From an uncultured Eubacteriales bacterium (GTDB lineage: Bacteria; Bacillota; Clostridia; Peptostreptococcales; Anaerovoracaceae), in contig CADBXM010000005.1 in NCBI GenBank assembly GCA_902798745.1, positions 29,768-93,767 of the forward strand: a stretch of DNA of 64,000 nt, read 5' to 3'. The notes below the pieces were generated by a model. It had not been told where the DNA came from. It did not search any database and worked only from the letters and a program-made list of their open reading frames with translations. A program made the position numbers and the translations under genes. Below, piece by piece: positions 10,016-19,711 of this stretch; the first letter of the stretch is position 1; each line of letters starts with the position of its first letter.

Positions 10016-11563
10016 CTACAACCACTCCACAGTTGCAGGCGGCTTTGAAGTTATGTCATAAACGACACGTGTTATATCCTCTATCTCGTTTGTTATCCGT
10101 AAGCTTACCTTCTCGAGAAGTTCAAAAGGCAGCCTTGTCCATTCAGCTGTCATGAAATCATCTGTTGTGACAGACCTCAGTACAACCGTAGAGCCATATG
10201 TCCTGGCATCTCCCTTGACACCGACAGACCTAAGATCCGTAAGCACGGCGAAGAACTGGCTCGCCAACTCTTCACAGCCTGCCTTAGCGATCTCTTCCCT
10301 GAAAATGGCATCGGCCTCACGCAGTATATCCAACTTTTCTTTGCTTATTTCGCCTATAACTCTTACAGCCAGTCCCGGCCCCGGGAAAGGTTGCCTGAAA
10401 ACTAGTTCCTCAGGGAGTCCCAGCTTGAGCCCTACTTCTCTGACTTCGTCCTTGAACAAGTCCCTTAATGGTTCTATGATCTCATCAAACTTCATAACCG
10501 ACGGTAATCCGCCAACATTGTGATGGCTCTTTATAACAGAGGAGTCACCTTTTCCGCTTTCGATCACGTCAGGATAAATGGTCCCCTGCGCTAGTACTGT
10601 GATATCACCGATCATTTCAGACGCGTCTTCAAATGTTCTGATAAACTCCTCGCCTATGATCTTTCGCCGTGTTTCAGGGTCTGTAACACCGCTAAGCTTT
10701 GTGAGGAATCTTTCCTCTGCGTCTACCCTTATAAGGTTCATGTCAAAGCGCCCTCTGAATGCGCTCTCGACCAGATCACCCTCACCTTTTCTCAGAAGAC
10801 CGTGATCAACGAACACCGCTGTAAGGTCTTTTCCGATCGCGCGCGAAAGAAGCGCTGCACAGACCGATGAGTCCACACCGCCTGATAATCCAAGCAAGAC
10901 CTTTTTTCCATTAAGCATCTCCTGAATCCTCTTGACAGATATATCTATGAAGTCATCCATTTTCCAATCCGCCTTGACATTCGAGATCTTAAACAGAAAA
11001 TCAGCTATGACCTCCTTGCCATACACAGTATGCGTGACCTCAGGATGGAATTGCGTTCCGTATATTTTTCTTACGGGATCTCCCATTGCCGCGACCGGGC
11101 AAACATCCGTATGCGCCAGTCTGATAAAGCCCTCAGGGAGCTCTGAAATATAGTCGGTATGGCTCATCCAGCAAATGCTCGTCTCGGGAACATCTTCCAT
11201 TAGAAGCCCTACCTTGCTTGAAACTCGGTCCGCTGTGACCTCAGTCTTTCCGTATTCGCCTGAACTGCCCGCAGCTGAAACCTTTCCCCCGGCCATCCAT
11301 GCGATGAGCTGGGCGCCATAGCATATTCCAAGAACAGGTATGCCGAGTTCCAGCAGTTTCGCGTCATAATGTGGCGAGCTTTCGAGATATACGCTGTTTG
11401 GACCTCCTGTCAGGATGACGGCTTTATACCCTGCTTCCAGTATTTCATCAGGCGATATTTTATTGTATGGCTTGATCTCGGCATATACCGACATCTCCCT
11501 TACACGTCTTGCAATAAGCTGATCATACTGTCCGCCGAAATCAAGAACCAACACCTTGTCCAC
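10016..11563 (-). CDS. guaA: GMP synthase (glutamine-hydrolysing)
   Basis: Converts XMP to GMP. The 515-residue protein has an N-terminal class I glutamine amidotransferase domain ([18 protein letters not shown], nucleophile in GICYGAQ, His-Glu in QFHPEV), an ATP pyrophosphatase domain with [11 protein letters not shown], and the C-terminal dimerisation domain ending in [12 protein letters not shown]. The start codon is GTG at 11563, with AGAGAGG about 10 bases upstream. It is the first gene of the nucleotide operon. Confidence 0.97.
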
Positions 11564-11628
11564 AGCTTTTCAACCTCTCTTTTCACCACAAAACAACAAT
11601 AGTACATAGTTAAGATAATCCATTTCTT

Positions 11629-11634
11629 ATTATA
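11629..11634 (-). promoter_or_regulatory. Possible -10 box for the guaA operon
   Basis: A perfect TATAAT on the minus strand lies about 65 bases upstream of the guaA start in an AT-rich region. No good -35 hexamer is seen at the right spacing, and no purine riboswitch or PurR-box pair is recognisable in the short leader. Confidence 0.3.
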
Positions 11635-11680
11635 TCTGAAATATATATATCATTTGCCTTATCATACTTTTTGCATATGA

Positions 11681-11711
11681 AAAAAATCGCCCGCACAAAT
11701 ATGCAGGCGAT
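11681..11711 (-). terminator. Terminator after the LysR-family gene
   Basis: On the minus strand, just past the LysR stop, ATCGCC and GCA pair with TGC and GGCGAT (11686-11711, single mismatch between them, 6-base loop), followed by five to six T residues at 11681-11686. It closes the ilvE-LysR unit and separates it from the guaA promoter region. Confidence 0.75.
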
Positions 11712-11744
11712 CTGTACAGAATCACGGTCTTTCCGTTATTCATT

Positions 11745-12644
11745 TTACTTATTCTGCTCCTTTTCAGTGCTTACCAATGTCTTTACAAAATCAATGAAAT
11801 TTTCCTCGACAACAGGCAGAGTATGTCCCTTGCGCCAGACGAACAGATACTCCATCATTTTTCCCCGTCCGGCGATCTCCCTGAAGACCAACGAGTCGTT
11901 TGGGATATATGCAGTTCTCGGATATATGCTGATCCCCACCTGTCTTCCCGCAAGCGCCGCTGCGTCGAGATAGCTGTCCATCTCACATACTATCCTCGGT
12001 TCGGCATTCACCTCACGGAACCACTTATAAATGGTCTCTATAACTGCCCTTCTGCTCGGCACTATGAGATTCTCTCCAACCAAATCGGCGACTCTCACCT
12101 TTCGACCGGCCACATTCGCCAATGGGTGATCTTTGCTCATAAGAGCTGCCATTTTTTCTTCACCGACATGAAAGCTGTGAAGAAGTGAATGATCACATGG
12201 CGATGTGATTACAGCCAGGCTGATGATCCCGCTGCGCAGCTTTTCGAGCAAGTCGTCTGTGCTGCCGTCGAGTATCCTGAAACGCACATTAGGATGTTGC
12301 TGCCTGAAGCCCGCAAACCATTCTGCTGCTATGTCAGGAGCCATACCCTCGACAAGGCCGATCGATATGGTCCCATGCATACCTTCTCTCATGGCAAGAA
12401 CTTCAGCTTTGGTCCTTTCAGCTAAGCTGAGTATGTCCTTGGCGCGCCTATAAAGGAGCTGCCCCGATTCAGTCAGCTTTAGGTGCCTTTTGCCCCTGAT
12501 GAACAGCAATGTATCGAGTTCTGTTTCCAGATTCTTTATCTGCGAGCTGAGCGGAGGCTGGCTCATATGCAGCTTTTCTGCTGCCTTTGTAATATTAAGT
12601 TCTTCTGCAACAGTTACAAAATATCGTAGGGTCCTGAGTTCCAT
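11745..12644 (-). CDS. LysR-family transcriptional regulator
   Basis: A 299-residue protein with an N-terminal winged helix-turn-helix (MELRTLRYFVTVAEELNIT, then AAEKLHMSQPPLSSQIKNLE) and a periplasmic-binding-like effector domain from about residue 90. This architecture is that of LysR activators, which sense a small metabolite. The longer frame from 12665 is not used because GGGGGTG sits just before the ATG at 12644. It starts only 29 bases after ilvE on the same strand, so it is probably co-transcribed with ilvE rather than divergently arranged as most LysR genes are. Effector and targets cannot be read from the sequence. Confidence 0.88.
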   Translation of the reverse strand: MELRTLRYFVTVAEELNITKAAEKLHMSQPPLSSQIKNLETELDTLLFIRGKRHLKLTESGQLLYRRAKDILSLAERTKAEVLAMREGMHGTISIGLVEGMAPDIAAEWFAGFRQQHPNVRFRILDGSTDDLLEKLRSGIISLAVITSPCDHSLLHSFHVGEEKMAALMSKDHPLANVAGRKVRVADLVGENLIVPSRRAVIETIYKWFREVNAEPRIVCEMDSYLDAAALAGRQVGISIYPRTAYIPNDSLVFREIAGRGKMMEYLFVWRKGHTLPVVEENFIDFVKTLVSTEKEQNK

Positions 12645-12673
12645 AGTCACCCCCATGTGAAACAAAGAGTCTG

Positions 12674-13756
12674 CTAAAGCCTTACTATCCAGTTGCCCAT
12701 CTCATCAGGAAGCTTGCCTGTCTGCATTCCATACAGACTGTCGTAAAGACGCTGGCTGATATCGCCGACTACCTCATTGTTGATCACATAATCTTCGCCC
12801 TTATAGTTAAGAACTCCGATAGGCGAGATCACGCATGCGGTACCTGTTGCCCAGGCTTCTTTGAGAGAGCCATCCTTTATAGCATCAAATACCTCTTTTA
12901 GTTCTATCCTGCGTTCTTCGACCTCGTAACCCCATTTGCGCAGAAGCTGTATTGCGCTGTCACGGGTCACTCCCGGAAGAATGGATCCTGTGAGTTCAGG
13001 CGTGATCACCTTATCGCCGATCACAAAGAATGCATTGGATGTACCTACTTCCTCGACATATTTATGTTCATTGGAATCGAGCCAGAGCACTTCTTCGCAG
13101 CCCTGTTCATGGGCCTTGATGGAGGCGATCATGCCGCACGCGTAATTACCTGCTGTTTTTGCGTATCCCGTGCCGCCGATAGCCGCACGGATGAATTTCT
13201 CTTCTACCAGTATGCGGCTGCCGTGGAGCTTGCTCTCGTTACCCTCGTAGTACGCTCCTACTGCGCACAGGATTATAATGAACCAATATTTCTTTGCAGG
13301 AAGCACCGAAAAGCTTACTTCCGGCGACAAGATGAATGGCCTTATATAGAGTGAAGTCCCGGGATCTGTCGGAGTCCAGTCTGCGTCCAGCTTGACGATA
13401 GCCTTGACTGCAGCGAGGAACAGTTCCTCGTCCATAGGCGGGATACACATTCTCTCGTTGGTATTGTTAAGGCGCTTCGCGTTCATATCAGGGCGGAACA
13501 GATTGAGTCCTCCTTCCGGATTGCGATAGGCCTTAAGGCCTTCAAACATCATCTGCCCGTAATGAAGTGTGGTCGCGCCGGGGTCAAAGCTGATAGGCCC
13601 GTAAGGCACTATCCTTCCGTCGTGCCAACCCTGCCCCTCATCATAATCCATGATGAACATGTGGTCTGTGAAGTACTTGCCGAATCCCAGTGATTTGCAG
13701 TTTGTCGGCTTTTCTTTTGGTGTAGTTGTTTTAGTTACAGGAAAAACGTAATCCAT
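12674..13756 (-). CDS. ilvE: Branched-chain amino acid aminotransferase
   Basis: Fold-type IV PLP enzyme of 360 residues that interconverts branched-chain amino acids and their keto acids. GTGYAKTAGNYA around residue 200 contains the PLP lysine, and YVEEVGTSNAFFV (about 232-244) contains the conserved glutamate; the length and these motifs match the longer BCAT form also found in eukaryotes. GGAGG precedes the ATG. It lies downstream of a regulator that itself carries a second, shorter fold-type IV domain, and upstream of a LysR gene. Confidence 0.95.
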   Translation of the reverse strand: MDYVFPVTKTTTPKEKPTNCKSLGFGKYFTDHMFIMDYDEGQGWHDGRIVPYGPISFDPGATTLHYGQMMFEGLKAYRNPEGGLNLFRPDMNAKRLNNTNERMCIPPMDEELFLAAVKAIVKLDADWTPTDPGTSLYIRPFILSPEVSFSVLPAKKYWFIIILCAVGAYYEGNESKLHGSRILVEEKFIRAAIGGTGYAKTAGNYACGMIASIKAHEQGCEEVLWLDSNEHKYVEEVGTSNAFFVIGDKVITPELTGSILPGVTRDSAIQLLRKWGYEVEERRIELKEVFDAIKDGSLKEAWATGTACVISPIGVLNYKGEDYVINNEVVGDISQRLYDSLYGMQTGKLPDEMGNWIVRL

Positions 13757-13775
13757 CTTTGTCCTCCGTGATATC

Positions 13776-13828
13776 GTGTAAAATCAATTCTATTAAGCCT
13801 AGCCTATAATTAACGATTAATTTTACAC
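13776..13828. promoter_or_regulatory. Inverted repeat upstream of ilvE (possible operator)
   Basis: Thirteen bases at 13776-13788 (GTGTAAAATCAAT) recur inverted at 13816-13828 with one mismatch, 27 bases apart, within the 122-base gap between ilvE and the MocR-type gene. The spacing and symmetry suit a dimeric regulator near the ilvE promoter. No clear -35/-10 pair was found. Confidence 0.4.
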
Positions 13829-13878
13829 TCTCCCGATCACTATTTAAAATACCTATAACTTTACAACCATCATAGCTT

Positions 13879-16062
13879 TTACATATGATTGTATTCTTTC
13901 ATTACATACCTGAGCACCGGATCGTTCACATCATATGAGATGCCTCCAATGGACGCGATCGGAAGCACCTTTGGCGATGTACCGCTTAGGAACGCCGCGT
14001 CAAAGCTTCGCAGTTCGTCCTTTCCGACCAAATGATAATGCAGCGGTATACCGGCTTTCTCTATGATCCTTATTATCATTGTCCTGGTCACTCCCAACAG
14101 TACTGTATCCGAAGGAGATGTATACACTTCCCCGTCTTTGATAAAGAACACATTGGAGCGGCTGCCTTCAGTTATTTTCCCATCATTATTGACCAAAAGG
14201 ACTTCATATAAGTCACCCGTTCTGATCGCTCTGTCAGTAGCATCCCTCAGCTCATGATCCATCATTTTGATGTTAGGATTCTTTCTCTCGCCCTTGAACA
14301 AATCTGTTCTGACTCCAGTCTCATAAAGCTTAGCGGATGGATAATGAGCCGGGTTGAGATGCACAATCGAGTGCCCATCGACATCCACTTCCACCCTGAC
14401 ATTATGATCATCTGAGCCTATCTCAGCTGCAAGATCAGTCAGGCTTTTGGCCAAATCATCACATGTAAAAGGTACCGGCAGCCCCATGCTCGCAAGCGAC
14501 TTTTCAAGTCTCTCGTAGTGTTCGCTCAGGAACTGCGGTTTCCCTCCGATCAGCCTTATTACCTCATATACCGAAGGAAGGCTGCCGCTTCCCTTCGTCA
14601 CAGCTGATTCAAAGCCTTCTATCATTGTTTTTACAGCGGCCCTGATCCTGCCCAGCGGGATCTGGTTATAGTAGAACACCAGATACATCTGCCCCTCACT
14701 ATCGAGCTGATCGATGCTGTTCACTTTTATGCCCGCTTCTGCGGCCGTCTTTATCAGACGATCCGCCATCTCGCAGCGTAACTCTGCTGTCCTGGCCTCG
14801 CCCCTTTTCCCTTGAGCAAGGACTCTTGTATGTGTATTTAGCTTTAATATTATGTTGATACCTGACTGAGTATTCTCCGCCGTAAGGAAGCCTCCCTCGC
14901 TCCCGTAATCCCTGATAGCTTCAAGGGTCTCACGAAGTTTGCCCGAGTACAGTTTGCGCACACGTCTGAGATTTGTGTGGAAGTAGCCCCTCCTCATAAA
15001 CTCCGCGAGAGTAAGCTGCTCAGTTTTGGAACAGGTCTGATCGTAGTTGTTACGCATGCTTTCGTACAGCTTCACCATCTCCTCAGGGAGCACCATGTAA
15101 CTTATCCTGATCGCCGGAAACAATGTGGACGAAAAGGAGCCGAGATATACGACCCTTCCGGAATGATCTATTCCCTGAAGCGCAGGGATAGGCATGCCGG
15201 TATATCGCAGTTCGCTGTTGTAATCATCTTCGATTATTATGCTATCATTGGCTTCCGCCCATTCAAGGATCTCGTGTCTGCGGCTTATAGGCATCACTGC
15301 GCCTGTAGGAAACTGGTTTTGCGGGCTGACATATACAGCGGTCCTGATGTTTACTGGAAGGCTCTCTATGACGATGCCGTCGCCTCTAACGGGTATACTG
15401 TTCATACTGAATCCCCAGTCACGGAATATGCTCCTCACAGGCATATAGCCGGGGTCCTCAACCGAAACGTGCTCAATATCCATCATTTTGAGTATTCTGG
15501 CCAAATGATTTATCAGCTGCTGTGTACCTGCGCTTATGACTACCTGTTCCTGAGAGCATATGACCCCTCTTGCCTTGTAAAGATATCCCGCTATCTCCGC
15601 TCTCAAAGCAGGCTCTCCCTGACGGTCTCCTTCTGACAGCAAAAGTTCCGGCGTCTCATTGAGGACTGCGGACATGCATTTCTTCCACTTTACGAAATCA
15701 AAGGACTCCGGGTCCCAGCTGAACCGGATCGTATCGCCTTTTTGCACTTTAGTGCTGCTTTCTTGACGCCCCTCTTTACCGCCATGATCTTTCAGGCTCC
15801 TGCGCGCGTCTTTTACTACAGCGCCCTGCGCTGCGTAGTATCCCGACTGAGGTCTGCTTATCAGATATCCTTCTGTCATCAGCTGCTCATACGCCATCTT
15901 GACTGTGGTGACACTCATGCCAACAGAAGATGCCATGCATCTTAATGAAGGCAGCCTCTCTCCTGTCTCGATCCTTCCCTCGGATATCTCTTCTTTAAGA
16001 TATTCATATAGCTGTACATAAAGGCTTTTGCCTGAATTGTGATCGATTTCCAAAGAAACCAT
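13879..16062 (-). CDS. MocR-type GntR regulator fused to a fold-type IV aminotransferase domain
   Basis: A 727-residue three-part protein. Residues 1-75 are a GntR winged helix (LYVQLYEYLKEEISEGRIE, then LPSLRCMASSVGMSVTTVK). Residues about 110-490 match the fold-type I aminotransferase domain of MocR/PdxR regulators (SPQNQFPTGAVMP, IIEDDYNSELRY). Where such proteins have the PLP lysine in FSKTL, this one reads FSSTL, with Ser312 (codon TCC). Residues about 495-727 are a fold-type IV aminotransferase-like domain with the expected lysine (NIKMMDHELR, Lys599), TEGSRSN (Glu632) and GVTR. So one PLP site appears lost and a second gained. The start has GGGG nearby. Divergent from an ECF vitamin transporter gene, which suggests vitamin B6 or amino-acid control. 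Confidence 0.87.
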   Translation of the reverse strand: MVSLEIDHNSGKSLYVQLYEYLKEEISEGRIETGERLPSLRCMASSVGMSVTTVKMAYEQLMTEGYLISRPQSGYYAAQGAVVKDARRSLKDHGGKEGRQESSTKVQKGDTIRFSWDPESFDFVKWKKCMSAVLNETPELLLSEGDRQGEPALRAEIAGYLYKARGVICSQEQVVISAGTQQLINHLARILKMMDIEHVSVEDPGYMPVRSIFRDWGFSMNSIPVRGDGIVIESLPVNIRTAVYVSPQNQFPTGAVMPISRRHEILEWAEANDSIIIEDDYNSELRYTGMPIPALQGIDHSGRVVYLGSFSSTLFPAIRISYMVLPEEMVKLYESMRNNYDQTCSKTEQLTLAEFMRRGYFHTNLRRVRKLYSGKLRETLEAIRDYGSEGGFLTAENTQSGINIILKLNTHTRVLAQGKRGEARTAELRCEMADRLIKTAAEAGIKVNSIDQLDSEGQMYLVFYYNQIPLGRIRAAVKTMIEGFESAVTKGSGSLPSVYEVIRLIGGKPQFLSEHYERLEKSLASMGLPVPFTCDDLAKSLTDLAAEIGSDDHNVRVEVDVDGHSIVHLNPAHYPSAKLYETGVRTDLFKGERKNPNIKMMDHELRDATDRAIRTGDLYEVLLVNNDGKITEGSRSNVFFIKDGEVYTSPSDTVLLGVTRTMIIRIIEKAGIPLHYHLVGKDELRSFDAAFLSGTSPKVLPIASIGGISYDVNDPVLRYVMKEYNHM

Positions 16063-16103
16063 CTGTTTTCCCCCTATTTATCCGCAGATTGTTATCATTA
16101 TTC

Positions 16104-16150
16104 TTCTATAATTGAGTATTTCTATAATCACAGTTTGCGATTATTATAAT
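16104..16150. promoter_or_regulatory. Candidate operator/promoter region between the MocR-type and ECF-S genes
   Basis: TTCTATAAT occurs twice as a direct repeat (16104-16112 and 16120-16128, 16 bases start to start), and ATAATC/GATTAT form an inverted repeat just after it. TATAAT-like hexamers appear on both strands. Direct repeats of this type are the usual binding sites of MocR regulators, here between the regulator and its divergent neighbour. Exact promoters cannot be assigned by eye. Confidence 0.4.
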
Positions 16151-16196
16151 TCATATAAAACAAGTGGTCAAGGCACAGCGGACTAAGGAGGATACC

Positions 16197-16700
16197 ATGG
16201 ACGCCCATTCTTCCGGGTTCAATACAAGTAAACTCGTATTCGCCTCACTAATGGCTTGCCTTGTTATGCTTGGCACCATCCTCTTCAGGATACCTATCCC
16301 CATGACACAGGGCTATGTGCATCTCGGAGATGCCATGATCTACCTCGGCGTACTGATCCTTGGAAAAAAACAGGGTGCCATAGCGGCCGCCCTGGGTTCT
16401 GCTCTCGGTGATATCCTCGGAGGCTTTGCCTTTTGGGCGCCGTGGAGCTTCGTTATTAAGTTTGCAATGGCATATATTGCCGGAACTCAGATCGATAAAA
16501 CACATAAGGTGGTTTCTATGACCGCCGGCGGTCTCGTCATGTGCGCAGGCTATCTGATCGCTGAACGTGTCATGTACGGGAGCTGGGCGCTTGCACTGAC
16601 AGGACTTCCGTGGAACATTGGACAGTTTGCTGTAGGCATCGCAGTCGCTTTAGCTTCGCAGCCACTCGTAAAACTGATCCCCGGAGTTGCCAGGAGCTGA
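16197..16700 (+). CDS. ECF transporter S component (vitamin uptake; pyridoxine or thiamine-precursor type suspected)
   Basis: A 167-residue membrane protein with about five to six hydrophobic segments. VHLGDAMIYLGVLILGKKQG followed by GSALGDILGGFAFWAPW and FVIKFAMAYIAG is the pattern of small substrate-binding subunits of energy-coupling factor transporters, which deliver vitamins to a shared EcfAAT module not present in this window. An in-frame GTG lies upstream at 16164, but AAGGAGG directly precedes the ATG at 16197. It faces a PdxR/MocR-type regulator across a 134-base promoter region, so a vitamin B6 substrate is plausible; hydroxymethylpyrimidine or another vitamin is possible. Its stop abuts that of the convergent YwaF-like gene. 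Confidence 0.75.
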   Translation: MDAHSSGFNTSKLVFASLMACLVMLGTILFRIPIPMTQGYVHLGDAMIYLGVLILGKKQGAIAAALGSALGDILGGFAFWAPWSFVIKFAMAYIAGTQIDKTHKVVSMTAGGLVMCAGYLIAERVMYGSWALALTGLPWNIGQFAVGIAVALASQPLVKLIPGVARS

Positions 16701-17429
16701 TCATGACTTCTCTGTATTAGAGAAAAACGCTCTATCCTCTGCGAGGAATATCAAATACGATGCCAGGATAAGACTGCACATATACAATACTACTTCCGGC
16801 AGCATCCCGATCTTCCCCGCTATATCTGACAATATCGGTTGGCTGGTCGGATAGAATGGACTTATATAGAACATCTCGGGCTCACGAGATGGATCGTTGA
16901 TGATAAGTTTTCCCAGAACATTTATCGATTCGGCGATTGCCGCCGTGATAAAAAACAACCAGAGGGACGGCAGAAATGAAGGCCGTTCCCTTTTTTTCAG
17001 GATCTCTAACGCTATTATGGATTCACTTATGATCAGAGCATGATATATGAACGAGTGTATCATGAACACCGATCCTTCGAGCAGCATGCCACCCGGAAAA
17101 GCCAGCGCCATGATAGCCCCGAGCAAAGAAAAGCTGCATAGATATACGAGCGCAGCATCCTGCGACTTTCCTTTCAGATATTTCACCGCGAACGACAGAT
17201 ACATGGCGATCGAGCACAGCTGCCATGGAAAGTATATGAGACTTATTTGTTCGCCATAGATGTATTTATAGCAAAACCACTGCTTGAATACCTCGGCAAT
17301 TAGCATTATCAAGCCAAGCACCCAAAGCAAATTCAGCAGATGGTCCTCTCCTTTATCCCTCACATAGTAAAAGACCGCTATGTTGATCGCGACCGCGAGC
17401 GCCACGAAAATCAGGTGCAAAGTTCCCAT
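16701..17429 (-). CDS. YwaF-like integral membrane protein
   Basis: A 242-residue protein with about seven hydrophobic helices. The segment LIYFPWQLCSIAMYLSFAVKY resembles the FPxQLC signature of the YwaF/TIGR02206 membrane family (distantly TMEM164-like), whose biochemical function is not established to my knowledge. It starts 9 bases after araD on the same strand, so it is probably the last gene of the sugar kinase operon. There is no space between its stop and the stop of the ECF gene. Confidence 0.55.
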   Translation of the reverse strand: MGTLHLIFVALAVAINIAVFYYVRDKGEDHLLNLLWVLGLIMLIAEVFKQWFCYKYIYGEQISLIYFPWQLCSIAMYLSFAVKYLKGKSQDAALVYLCSFSLLGAIMALAFPGGMLLEGSVFMIHSFIYHALIISESIIALEILKKRERPSFLPSLWLFFITAAIAESINVLGKLIINDPSREPEMFYISPFYPTSQPILSDIAGKIGMLPEVVLYMCSLILASYLIFLAEDRAFFSNTEKS

Positions 17430-17438
17430 ATCCAGCCT

Positions 17439-18131
17439 TTACTTCTGTCCGTAATACGCATTCGCCCCGTGTTTGCGGAGATAATGTTTGTCGAGCAGTT
17501 CCTGCTGCATGTTTCCCAGATTCCGGTTGAGCATCTCCGCATGATAATTCATTTCGCATACAGTTTCCAAAACAACTGAATTATGGACGGCATTCACGGG
17601 ATCTATGCCCCATACGAATGGGCCATGCGAGTGAACGAGGACCGCCTGCACAGCATCAGGATCGATGTCCTTGAAGGTCTCCACGATCACATTGCCTGTT
17701 TCAAGTTCATACCTGCCGCCTATTTCCTCAGGAGTCATCAGCCTTGTGCAAGGGACTTCGCCGTAAAAATGATCCGCGTGTGTCGTACCCAGCGGTCTGA
17801 CAGCTTTTCCGGCCTGAGCGTAGGATACAGCCCACTTGCTGTGAGTGTGAACGATCCCACCTATATTTTTGAACTGTCTGTAAAGTACAAGGTGTGTATC
17901 CGTATCACTTGACGGTCTAAGAACCCCCTCGACTACCTGCCCGGACGCCAGATCGACAACGACCATATCTTCAGGCTTCATATCGTCGTATTCGACACCG
18001 CTCGGCTTTATCACCATGAGCCCTCTTTCTCTGTCGATACCGGAAACATTGCCCCATGTAAAAACTACAAGTCCGTATTCCGGCAGCATCATATTGGCTT
18101 CGTATACTTGTTTCTTTAGTTCTTCCAGCAT
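17439..18131 (-). CDS. araD: L-ribulose-5-phosphate 4-epimerase
   Basis: Class II aldolase-fold zinc enzyme of 230 residues that epimerises L-ribulose-5-phosphate to D-xylulose-5-phosphate, feeding pentoses to the pentose phosphate pathway. Zinc ligands are visible in [14 protein letters not shown] and [12 protein letters not shown], and [24 protein letters not shown] is the family N-terminal block. A frame from 18152 exists, but GGAGG precedes the ATG at 18131, which leaves an 11-base gap after the kinase. AraD and UlaF/SgbE (L-ascorbate route) are close relatives; the kinase next door does not settle which pathway. Confidence 0.93.
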
Positions 18132-18142
18132 CTTGCCTCCTT

Positions 18143-19711
18143 CTACAGGCACTGTATGGCTGCTTTTTCAACAGGAAGTGCTTTTATATAATTATCCAAG
18201 AACACTGTAAATCCCGAAATATCTTCTTCATTTGCCATCAAAGTGTGAGTGACCGCGTCTCCAAATACCTTGTTGTCAAGATAATCTTCAAGAGACTCTC
18301 CATCCTCATGCCAGATCATGTACGCAGCAAGAAGCGCCATTCCGAAAGGGCCTCCTTCTCCTGCTGTTTCCATGACGGAAACAGGCGTTCCCACTGCTGC
18401 CGACAGCATCCTCTGACCGACTTCCGGAGTCTTGAAGAACCCTCCATGACCATATAGTTTATCGATCTTGACACTCTCCTTTTCTGTAAGGATGTCCATG
18501 CCTATCTTGAGTGTTGCCAAAGCTGACAGAAGATGCGTTCTCATAAAATTCGCGAGGCTGAAATCGCTGTTGTTCGCTCTTGCAAAAACAGGCCTTCCTT
18601 CATCGAGGTCAGTGATCCCCTCACCTGAAATATAGTTGAAGCTCATCAGACCACCGCAGTCCGGATCTCCCTCAAGAGCTTTGCGGAACAAAGTCACAAA
18701 GACTTCCTTTTTGCTCACTTTCAGTCCCATGGCATCAACAAAATCGCAGAAAAGATCGACCCATGCATTGATATCCGAAGTGCAGTTGTTGCAGTGTACC
18801 ATTGCTACGGGTGAACCCGATGGAGTTGTGACCATGTCTATCTCACGGTGGACCCCAAGCTTATGATCGGTTACGACCATGGCAAAATCACTTGTGCCTG
18901 CCGATACGTTTCCGGTACGCACTCTCACTGAATTTGTCGCTGTCATGCCTGTTCCTGCGTCTCCCTCGCACGGAGCAACCGGGATGCCGTCTTTGAGAGT
19001 ACATGTTGGATCAAGAAAAGCTGCGCCTTCTGATGTCAGCACGCCCCCTGATTCACCGGCGGTCTTGATCTCAGGAAGGATATCTCTCAGCTTCCACCCA
19101 TAGCCCTTTCCTGCTATCAGAGCATCAAATTTATCGACCATCTGCTGATCGTAATCATTCTTCTCACTGTCGATCGGGAACATTCCCGATGCTTCTCCGA
19201 CGCCCATCACTTTTTCGCCCGTGAATTTCCAGTGCACATATCCTGCAAGCGTAGTCAGATAATCTATTTCCGCTACGTGATCGTATCCTGCTTTCACAGC
19301 CTGATAAAGGTGGGCTATACTCCATCTTTGAGGTATATTGAACCCGAACAGTTCTGTGAGTTCTGACGCCTCTTCGCTGGTGATCGTATTGCGCCATGTG
19401 CGGAATCTCGCAAGTTGTCTGCCGTCTTTATCAAACGGAAGATATCCGTGCATCATGGCGGAAACGCCTATGGCTCCCACTTCTGTCAACGGAGAATCAA
19501 ATTTATGCTCGGCTTCATCCTTAAGCTTGGCATAACATGAGCGGATACCCTCTGCAACTTCATCAAGAGAATACGTCCAGATCCCGTCTTCCAAGCGGTT
19601 TTCCCACTCATAACTGCCACCGGCGACCGGTATATGATCCTCGTCTATAAGAACAGCCTTGATCCTTGTAGAACCAAGCTCTATCCCGAGAACAGCTTTT
19701 TTATAGTCCAT
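18143..19711 (-). CDS. FGGY-family pentulose kinase (L-ribulokinase or L-xylulokinase)
   Basis: A 522-residue kinase with both FGGY actin-like domains: [19 protein letters not shown] at the N-terminus, [34 protein letters not shown] in the middle and [22 protein letters not shown] in the C-terminal half. It phosphorylates a keto-sugar before AraD acts, so L-ribulose is the simplest substrate and L-xylulose the alternative. No isomerase (AraA) or sugar transporter is in the window. First gene of a kinase-araD-ywaF unit; a cre-like site lies about 70 bases upstream. Confidence 0.85.

What the first reader, a model, noticed from the sequence alone, without database searches (positions are those of the whole stretch)
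13879..16062. MocR regulator with PLP lysine replaced by Ser and a fused fold-type IV aminotransferase domain
MocR proteins sense ligands through a fold-type I PLP domain. In this one the lysine of the FSKTL motif is Ser312, so an internal aldimine cannot form there. The protein extends by about 230 residues into a fold-type IV domain whose PLP lysine (Lys599) and Glu632 are present. The sensory PLP chemistry may have moved to a second, structurally unrelated PLP fold, giving a HTH-foldI-foldIV regulator or a bifunctional enzyme-regulator.
Basis: partly seen in the sequence, partly recalled or inferred. Interest (0 to 1): 0.8.

Follow-up and report, generated by a model that had tools for sequence, protein, structure and literature searches.

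The report
Lysine-less vitamin-B6 regulator fused to transaminase
A bacterium whose relatives live in animal guts makes a gene switch, probably for vitamin B6 uptake, whose usual B6-holding lysine is missing and to whose end a second, apparently intact B6-binding enzyme-like domain has been joined; the missing lysine is shared by many related switches, while the added domain looks like a later, local invention.

Summary
Window 13879-16062 (-) is one 727-aa frame: GntR helix-turn-helix, MocR fold-type I domain with Ser312 in place of the aldimine Lys, and a fold-type IV domain with Lys599 and Glu632. Twenty-two full-length copies (window included) in 21 of 47 genomes of the genus exclude an artefact. 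The proposed link between Lys loss and fusion does not hold: 67 unfused rows in my tree (65 distinct) also lack the Lys, and the fusion maps to one change inside that Lys-less clade. The trait that goes with Lys loss is context: a divergent ECF S-component gene related to HmpT/PdxU2 (vitamin B6) in 18 of 18 testable fused, 46 of 67 testable unfused Lys-less and 0 of 13 Lys-bearing loci; five Lys-bearing ones face pdxS. No genome of the genus has pdxS above cut-off. The added domain best matches DtolTA, the first monomeric fold-IV transaminase; 13 of 14 PLP contacts are identical. All domains are under purifying selection. Best reading: a regulator of B6-type uptake whose fold-I domain senses without an aldimine, carrying a PLP-binding DtolTA-like module whose role (second sensor, PMP-releasing enzyme, passenger) is open. 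New variant of MocR/PdxR.

The parts
13879..16062 (-). HTH - fold-type I - fold-type IV fusion gene, 727 aa
   Evidence: single ORF; 22 full-length fused genes in the genus, this one included
15835..16023 (-). GntR winged helix-turn-helix, residues 14-76
   Evidence: Pfam PF00392, 51 bits
14602..15720 (-). MocR fold-type I aminotransferase-like domain, about residues 115-487
   Evidence: Pfam PF00155 and NCBIfam PdxR; Foldseek to the GabR/PdxR C-terminal domains, TMt 0.80-0.86
15127..15129 (-). Ser312 codon at the position of the internal-aldimine Lys
   Evidence: B. clausii PdxR and GabR have Lys in the same column
13888..14577 (-). fold-type IV (Aminotran_4, DtolTA-like) domain, about residues 496-725
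   Evidence: Pfam PF01063, 144 bits; profile search to DtolTA E 3.6e-52; Foldseek to 9j0v TMt 0.88 in the full model, 0.85 for the domain alone
14266..14268 (-). Lys599 codon, equivalent of DtolTA PLP Lys137
   Evidence: present in window + 21 of 21 fused loci
14167..14169 (-). Glu632 codon, equivalent of DtolTA Glu170 (bonds PLP N1)
   Evidence: PMC11673721 section 2.5
16143..16171 (-). promoter-like TTGACC-N17-TATAAT for the fusion gene
   Evidence: 19 of 19 fused upstream regions match a pattern written after seeing the alignment, shuffles mean 0.92
16125..16135 (-). left half (AACTGTGATTA) of a candidate operator just downstream of the -10 box
   Evidence: upstream alignment, coordinates; function not tested
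16084..16092 (-). right half (ACAATCTGC) of the candidate operator; the window is one of 2 of 19 fused regions that miss the repeat-pair pattern
   Evidence: function not tested
16164..16700 (+). divergent ECF-transporter S component (PF07155); the ATG at 16197 behind AAGGAGG is the likelier start
   Evidence: Pfam 108 bits; only PDB sequence match 4hzu_S; divergent ECF neighbour in 18 of 18 testable other fused loci

Best explanation
A PdxR-like MocR regulator of the divergent ECF S-component gene and of itself. Shown by sequence: the HTH; a conserved but Lys-less fold-I domain; a DtolTA-like fold-IV PLP site with its contacts kept; a conserved divergent ECF gene; no pdxS above cut-off. Inferred: the fold-I domain binds a phosphorylated B6 vitamer (or a close analogue) reversibly without a Schiff base, so it reports the B6 pool instead of holding PLP as a fixed cofactor, and switches expression of a B6-type uptake system. 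Also inferred: the C-terminal domain binds PLP on Lys599 as a self-contained unit and either adds a second, aldimine-based PLP read-out or carries out a half-transamination that turns PLP plus an amine donor into PMP. Lys loss came first, in the ECF-linked MocR clade; fusion followed, on the MocR tree once, and has been seen in one genus only.
For: Tree of 101 MocR rows: fused rows need one change (SH-aLRT 91, quick search) inside an 86-row clade without Lys; the 13 Lys-bearing rows fall outside it. A divergent ECF S gene stands within 700 bases of 18 of 18 testable fused loci, 46 of 67 testable unfused Lys-less loci and 0 of 13 Lys-bearing loci. The S component's only PDB sequence match is HmpT/PdxU2, for which pyridoxamine was found as substrate (PMC4860826, passages). 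pdxS is over the cut-off in 0 of 47 genomes of the genus; the window genome has one Phos_pyr_kin hit, which could be a B6 kinase or ThiD. In the family sample 8 of 148 genomes have pdxS over the cut-off; in 7 of the 8 a MocR match lies beside it on the opposite strand (coordinates; for G065 the match is partial; the list is capped), and the 5 of those 7 that I read (L094, L101, L104, L106, L107) have Lys. Fold-I residues Glu278, Asp279 and Tyr281 stay conserved without Lys, and fold I has the lowest dN/dS in each of six pairs. Fold IV: 13 of 14 DtolTA PLP contacts identical, the other Thr to Ser, all 14 invariant in 20 full-length fused proteins.
Against: No ligand, DNA-binding or PLP data exist. 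The S component differs from HmpT at three of the six discussed pocket positions (E41 to D, H84 to K, Q87 to M), in 67-68 of 70 sequences, so its substrate may not be B6. 21 of 67 testable unfused Lys-less loci, including L026 and L027 of the sister group, have no ECF neighbour within the distance tested. The fold-I pocket also changed elsewhere: His249 of the Lys-bearing rows is Asn, and Arg319 is Lys in 82% of unfused Lys-less rows, so the ligand may have changed. NCBIfam calls the Lys-less proteins PdxR, but that model does not test the Lys. Nothing shows that the fold-IV domain talks to the HTH.
Confidence: 0.58

Rival explanations
1. Trigger-enzyme or passenger reading: the fold-IV domain is an ordinary (R)-selective amine/D-amino-acid deaminase or transaminase joined to the regulator only for co-expression or co-location, with no part in sensing.
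For: Separate homologues occur elsewhere in the family and class. In the 13 loci I read I saw no shared neighbours except between the genus-mates L067 and L068 (by eye); one of the 13, L070, is itself fused to a GDT1 transporter, so the domain joins unrelated partners. PLP contacts kept. Arg503 lies where bsDATA has Lys35 and DtolTA has Gln38, which could bind a gamma-carboxylate.
Against: In the genus list no genome with a full-length fused gene shows a second, separate copy of this domain; the fusion is kept down to about 57-60% identity; the DtolTA N-terminal segment (1-31) is missing from the fused domain, which may impair catalysis.
Confidence: 0.27
2. One reading: Lys loss in fold I was made possible by, or compensated by, transfer of the PLP-sensing chemistry to the fold-IV domain.
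For: All fused proteins read lack Lys312 and keep Lys599/Glu632 (window + 21 of 21).
Against: 67 unfused rows (65 distinct) also lack the Lys, including the closest sisters L025-L027; the fold-I domain is the most constrained of the three.
Confidence: 0.07
3. The ECF system carries something other than vitamin B6, and the Lys-less domain senses that compound.
For: Pocket differences D/K/M against HmpT E41/H84/Q87 are nearly uniform; Pfam names the family for riboflavin; fold-I pocket changes at 249 and 319.
Against: HmpT is the only PDB sequence match; Y120, N140, Q143 kept; PdxR-type regulator; genus without pdxS above cut-off.
Confidence: 0.2
4. Artefact: frameshift, mis-assembly or a decayed pseudogene.
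For: None found.
Against: 22 full-length fused genes in 21 genomes; dN/dS 0.034-0.112 in all domains.
Confidence: 0.01

Closest known systems
PdxR (MocR subfamily; B. clausii PdxR 7pq9/7zla; NCBIfam NF052282)
   Same: Same HTH + fold-I architecture; best sequence and structure match. PdxR regulons include transport genes pdxU (PMC5320631 section 11); in Streptococcus pyogenes PdxR acts on pdxKU (PMC11619246, passages).
   Different: No aldimine Lys; no pdxS above cut-off in the genome; extra fold-IV domain; faces an ECF S gene whose pocket differs from HmpT.
GabR of B. subtilis
   Same: Same fold; Asp279 and Tyr281 at the same numbers.
   Different: GabR responds through an external aldimine of PLP and GABA (entry titles) with Lys312; not possible in fold I here.
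DtolTA, monomeric fold-type IV transaminase (9j0u/9j0v; PMC11673721)
   Same: Best match of the C-terminal domain by sequence and fold; 13 of 14 PLP contacts identical.
   Different: Fused; lacks the equivalent of DtolTA residues 1-31; shorter C-terminus (alignment ends at DtolTA 265 of 286); Gln38 is Arg503, Lys91 is Arg556, Ser142 is Glu604.
HmpT/PdxU2 ECF S component (4hzu)
   Same: Only PDB sequence match of the divergent gene.
   Different: Three of six discussed pocket residues differ.

Membership tests
MocR/GabR subfamily of GntR | N-terminal GntR winged HTH | tested here: met
   PF00392 at 14-76
MocR/GabR subfamily of GntR | fold-type I aminotransferase-like domain after the HTH | tested here: met
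   PF00155; Foldseek to GabR/PdxR
MocR/GabR subfamily of GntR | Lys312 for the internal aldimine (PMC6677901: Asp279 and Lys312 conserved across its clusters; passage) | tested here: not met
   Ser312. I therefore call it a MocR by homology and architecture and a variant by mechanism.
MocR/GabR subfamily of GntR | Asp279 and Tyr281 of the PLP pocket | tested here: met
MocR/GabR subfamily of GntR | PLP- or ligand-dependent DNA binding | not testable with these tools
   needs purified protein
PdxR | NCBIfam NF052282 above cut-off | tested here: met
   444 bits against 320
PdxR | linked to B6 synthesis or salvage genes | tested here: inconclusive
   no pdxS in the genome or above cut-off in the genus; divergent ECF S gene related to HmpT
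DtolTA-like fold-type IV transaminase | PLP Lys, Glu to N1, phosphate-binding Arg/Thr residues | tested here: met
   K599, E632, R518, T659, T695
DtolTA-like fold-type IV transaminase | N-terminal region 1 and extended C-terminal helix | tested here: not met
   aligned stretch runs from DtolTA 32 to 265 of 286; so I call it DtolTA-like, not a member
DtolTA-like fold-type IV transaminase | monomeric; (R)/D-selective half-transamination | not testable with these tools
   needs enzymology

The most novel reading that the evidence does not exclude
A two-stage B6 sensor in one chain: the fold-IV domain, which like DtolTA may hold PMP badly, turns PLP plus a D-amino acid or amine into PMP and releases it next to a fold-I sensor that has given up its Lys and so reads PMP (or any non-aldehyde B6 phosphate) by non-covalent binding. 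Transcription of the uptake gene would then answer to PLP and amine donor together.
Probability: 0.1. Interest if true: 0.88.

Novelty: new variant of a known kind. Interest (0 to 1): 0.62.

Why it matters
MocR sensing has been explained through the aldimine of one Lys. A clade that lost this Lys yet keeps the domain under the strongest constraint, with Lys-bearing paralogues beside pdxS and Lys-less ones beside an ECF uptake gene, makes it directly testable how an aminotransferase fold senses without its Schiff base. The fusion adds a regulator with two unrelated PLP folds in series, and a natural construct to ask what monomeric fold-IV transaminases are for.

Tried and rejected
Frameshift or assembly artefact: rejected by 22 full-length fused genes. 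Lys loss as a consequence of fusion: not supported by the tree. Fold-IV domain as PabC for p-aminobenzoate: unlikely, since no chorismate-binding enzyme was found in the genome (PF00425; assembly 93% complete). Fold-IV domain as the D-Glu source in place of a glutamate racemase: not supported for the genus, since PF01177 is over the cut-off in 47 of 47 genomes; in the window genome the only hit is 36 bits, so there it stays open. A link to the neighbouring BCAT gene: it appeared in none of the flanks of L004-L052 (flanks of at most 5 kb, many shorter). A riboswitch: one chance-level snoRNA match in 11500-18500. A defence role: no PADLOC hit. Fusion outside the genus: none besides the window's own gene in 148 family genomes or 391 class genomes (there at most two candidates per genome were scored, E up to 1e-60). 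The fold-IV tree is weak: 12 of the 13 other rows form one group (96/99), but L075, a long branch, falls among the fused rows, the outgroup BCAT is a very long branch, and only 26% of bootstrap trees show the fused rows as one side of a branch; a single origin of the fused domains is not proved there. Not tested: whether the Lys-less clade reaches beyond the family (the class hits were not read at position 312). Literature: searches listed no paper on Lys-less MocRs or on an HTH-fold I-fold IV protein by title or abstract start; two returned zero papers. The library is open-access only. Notebook slips corrected here: entry 1 says S/T at 312 (the S/T variation in the close relatives is at 311; 312 is Ser there), entry 2 says 19/21 fused loci with the ECF gene (18 of 18 testable), entry 2 says 13 stand-alone fold-IV genes (12, since L070 is a GDT1 fusion), entry 4 says at least 6 pdxS genomes with a MocR neighbour (7 of 8).

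Full report
Observation. Window 13879-16062 on the minus strand is a single 727-aa frame. Residues 312, 599 and 632 are Ser, Lys and Glu. Pfam finds GntR (14-76), Aminotran_1_2 (145-347) and Aminotran_4 (498-705). NCBIfam assigns residues 13-480 to PdxR, 444 bits against a cut-off of 320. In the PDB sequence search the first domains match B. clausii PdxR and B. subtilis GabR, both with Lys in the column of Ser312.

The fusion is real and local. One scan of genome contigs gave 49 loci. 21 of them (L004-L024) encode the fusion, two cut at the 5' end; the window and 21 of 21 have Ser312, Lys599 and Glu632. In the window's genus, 22 full-length fused genes, the window's included, occur in 21 of 47 genomes (G157 has two), with longer fragments in G173 and G183 and a 54-aa one in G188; 3 genomes have the unfused sister type and 6 a more distant unfused one. 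In 148 genomes of the family and 391 of the class, drawn by the tool, the only fused gene listed was the window's own (the list is capped below its best matches, and one search scored at most two candidates per genome). dN/dS (NG86) for six close pairs is 0.034-0.112 over the three domains, lowest for fold I in each pair; dS above 1 in several comparisons makes those values rough.

Lys loss looks older than the fusion. The 27 unfused close loci (L025-L051) all have Ser at position 312; the distant L052 has Lys. From the family search I picked 60 of the listed matches by hand, higher- and lower-scoring ones, and used two more loci that one search had given (L061, L064). Of these 62, 47 score 330 bits or more and none has Lys; of the 15 lower-scoring ones 13 have Lys, L093 has Ser and L105 Asn. 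Some loci are the same gene from two sources. Left out of the tree: L060, L080, L082 and L089 as such duplicates; L017, L023, L030, L049 and L051, cut at contig ends; L052, cut and distant; L014, a full-length near-copy of L013. In the tree of 101 rows, column 312 removed, the fused rows need one change (SH-aLRT 91) and lie inside an 86-row Lys-less clade (Ser 81, Ala 3, Thr 2; 67 unfused rows, 65 distinct, and 19 fused), with L025-L027 as sister. Lys against not-Lys needs three changes because of L093 and L105. The search was quick and support on several inner branches is under 95.

Context. A divergent ECF S-component gene lies within 700 bases in 18 of 18 fused loci with enough upstream sequence (3 of 21 too short), in 46 of 67 unfused Lys-less loci (3 of 70 too short; two identical pairs are counted twice), in 0 of 13 Lys-bearing loci and in 1 of the 2 odd rows L093/L105. 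L118, counted as without, has a divergent one farther off. The S component belongs to PF07155 and its only PDB sequence match is 4hzu_S, which PMC4860826 (passages) calls HmpT/PdxU2 and for which pyridoxamine was identified. Of the six pocket residues discussed there, Y120, N140 and Q143 are kept, E41 is Asp, H84 Lys and Q87 Met in the window, as in 67-68 of 70 sequences. So B6 transport is an inference. pdxS (PF01680) is over the cut-off in 0 of 47 genomes of the genus, with one 20-bit match below it, and in 8 of 148 of the family. In 7 of those 8 (G032, G072, G056, G103, G140, G047, and G065 by a partial match) a MocR match lies beside pdxS on the other strand (coordinates); I read 5 of the 7 (L094, L101, L104, L106, L107) and all have Lys. 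G072, G032 and G047 also carry a Lys-less one (L058, L114, L066). Reading: Lys-bearing PdxR goes with synthesis, the Lys-less protein with uptake. PMC5320631 (abstract, sections 11 and 15, passages) describes PdxR regulons with pdxST, pdxK and pdxU.

Upstream DNA. Aligned upstream regions (window, 18 fused and 11 unfused loci) show a TTGACC-N17-TATAAT promoter for the regulator followed by AACTGTGAT...ACAATT/ACAGTT repeats, shared in part with unfused relatives. With patterns written after seeing the alignment, 19 of 19 fused regions match the promoter and 17 of 19 the repeat pair (unfused: 10 and 6 of 11); 200 shuffles of the fused set gave means of 0.92 and 0.27 and maxima of 4 and 2 of 19. 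The window is one of the two misses for the repeat pair. That this is an operator is inference.

Fold-I pocket. Glu278, Asp279 and Tyr281 stay conserved without Lys; His249 of the Lys-bearing rows is Asn; Arg319 is kept in the fused rows and is Lys in 82% of unfused Lys-less rows. A pocket kept this way suggests a bound ligand, not decay, though perhaps not the same ligand. Lys-less fold-I enzymes that use PMP, such as ColD and the E1 dehydratase of dideoxysugar pathways, are a precedent that I recall and did not look up.

Fold-IV domain. The AlphaFold model of the whole chain has mean pLDDT 79 and pTM 0.61, that of the domain alone 89 and 0.87; domain placement was not judged. Foldseek ranks DtolTA first for the domain (9j0v, TMt 0.85, 36% identity), as does the profile search (E 3.6e-52, next 1e-26). 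PMC11673721 (abstract, passages, sections 2.4, 2.5 and Conclusions) names PLP contacts K137, R53, T198, T234, V197, V36, N175, R199, T232, L194, R173, S174, E170, Y34. By the alignment these are K599, R518, T659, T695, V658, V501, N637, R660, S693, L655, R635, S636, E632, Y499: 13 of 14 identical, and all are invariant in 20 full-length fused proteins. [quoted passage not shown] A self-contained unit suits fusion to the end of a dimeric regulator. Gln38 of DtolTA (Lys35 in bsDATA, which binds a gamma-carboxylate) is Arg503, invariant in those 20. The equivalents of DtolTA residues 1-31 and of the end of its C-terminal helix are absent. Separate homologues occur elsewhere in the family and class. 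Of the 13 loci I read, 12 stand alone and L070 is fused to a GDT1 antiporter; I saw no shared neighbours except between the genus-mates L067 and L068, by eye.

Mechanism. Shown by sequence: domains, residues, neighbours, constraint. Inferred: autoregulation and control of the ECF gene, B6-type ligand, non-covalent sensing by fold I, PLP on Lys599. Open: whether fold IV informs the HTH.

Novelty. It is a MocR by homology and architecture but fails the Lys feature, and PdxR membership is inconclusive in function. In the searches made (open-access library only) no listed title or abstract start concerned Lys-less MocRs or this fusion; PMC6677901 (passages) states Lys312 conserved across its MocR clusters. 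I rate it a new variant of a known kind, interest 0.62: the Lys-less clade is the more surprising half, the fusion the more curious one.

Noticed in passing
L070:2580-4040: The same type of fold-IV domain behind a GDT1 (PF01169) cation/proton antiporter in one frame of 487 aa: a second, unrelated fusion partner.
   Followed up: partly
L094, L101, L104, L106, L107: Lys-bearing MocR paralogues divergent to pdxS in family genomes that have pdxS; in three of these five genomes a Lys-less paralogue was read elsewhere.
   Followed up: partly
window 16164-16700 and 69 related S components: Nearly uniform pocket residues Asp/Lys/Met where HmpT has E41/H84/Q87: a conserved Lys in the binding pocket of a putative B6 transporter.
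   Followed up: no
L105 and L093: Two further MocRs without the aldimine Lys (Asn and Ser) outside the main Lys-less clade; L105 also faces an ECF S gene, hinting at independent losses tied to uptake genes.
   Followed up: no
G157 (C82 and C92); L008 and L014 from one assembly: Two different fused genes in one assembly: paralogues or mixed bins.
   Followed up: no
window 16197: The ECF gene probably starts at ATG 16197 behind AAGGAGG, not at GTG 16164, since the regulator's -35 box covers 16166-16171.
   Followed up: no
G000:C1:84017-84340: The window genome's only PF01177 (Asp/Glu racemase) hit is 36 bits; of the other 46 genomes 45 have a best E of 1e-18 or lower. May be an assembly gap.
   Followed up: no
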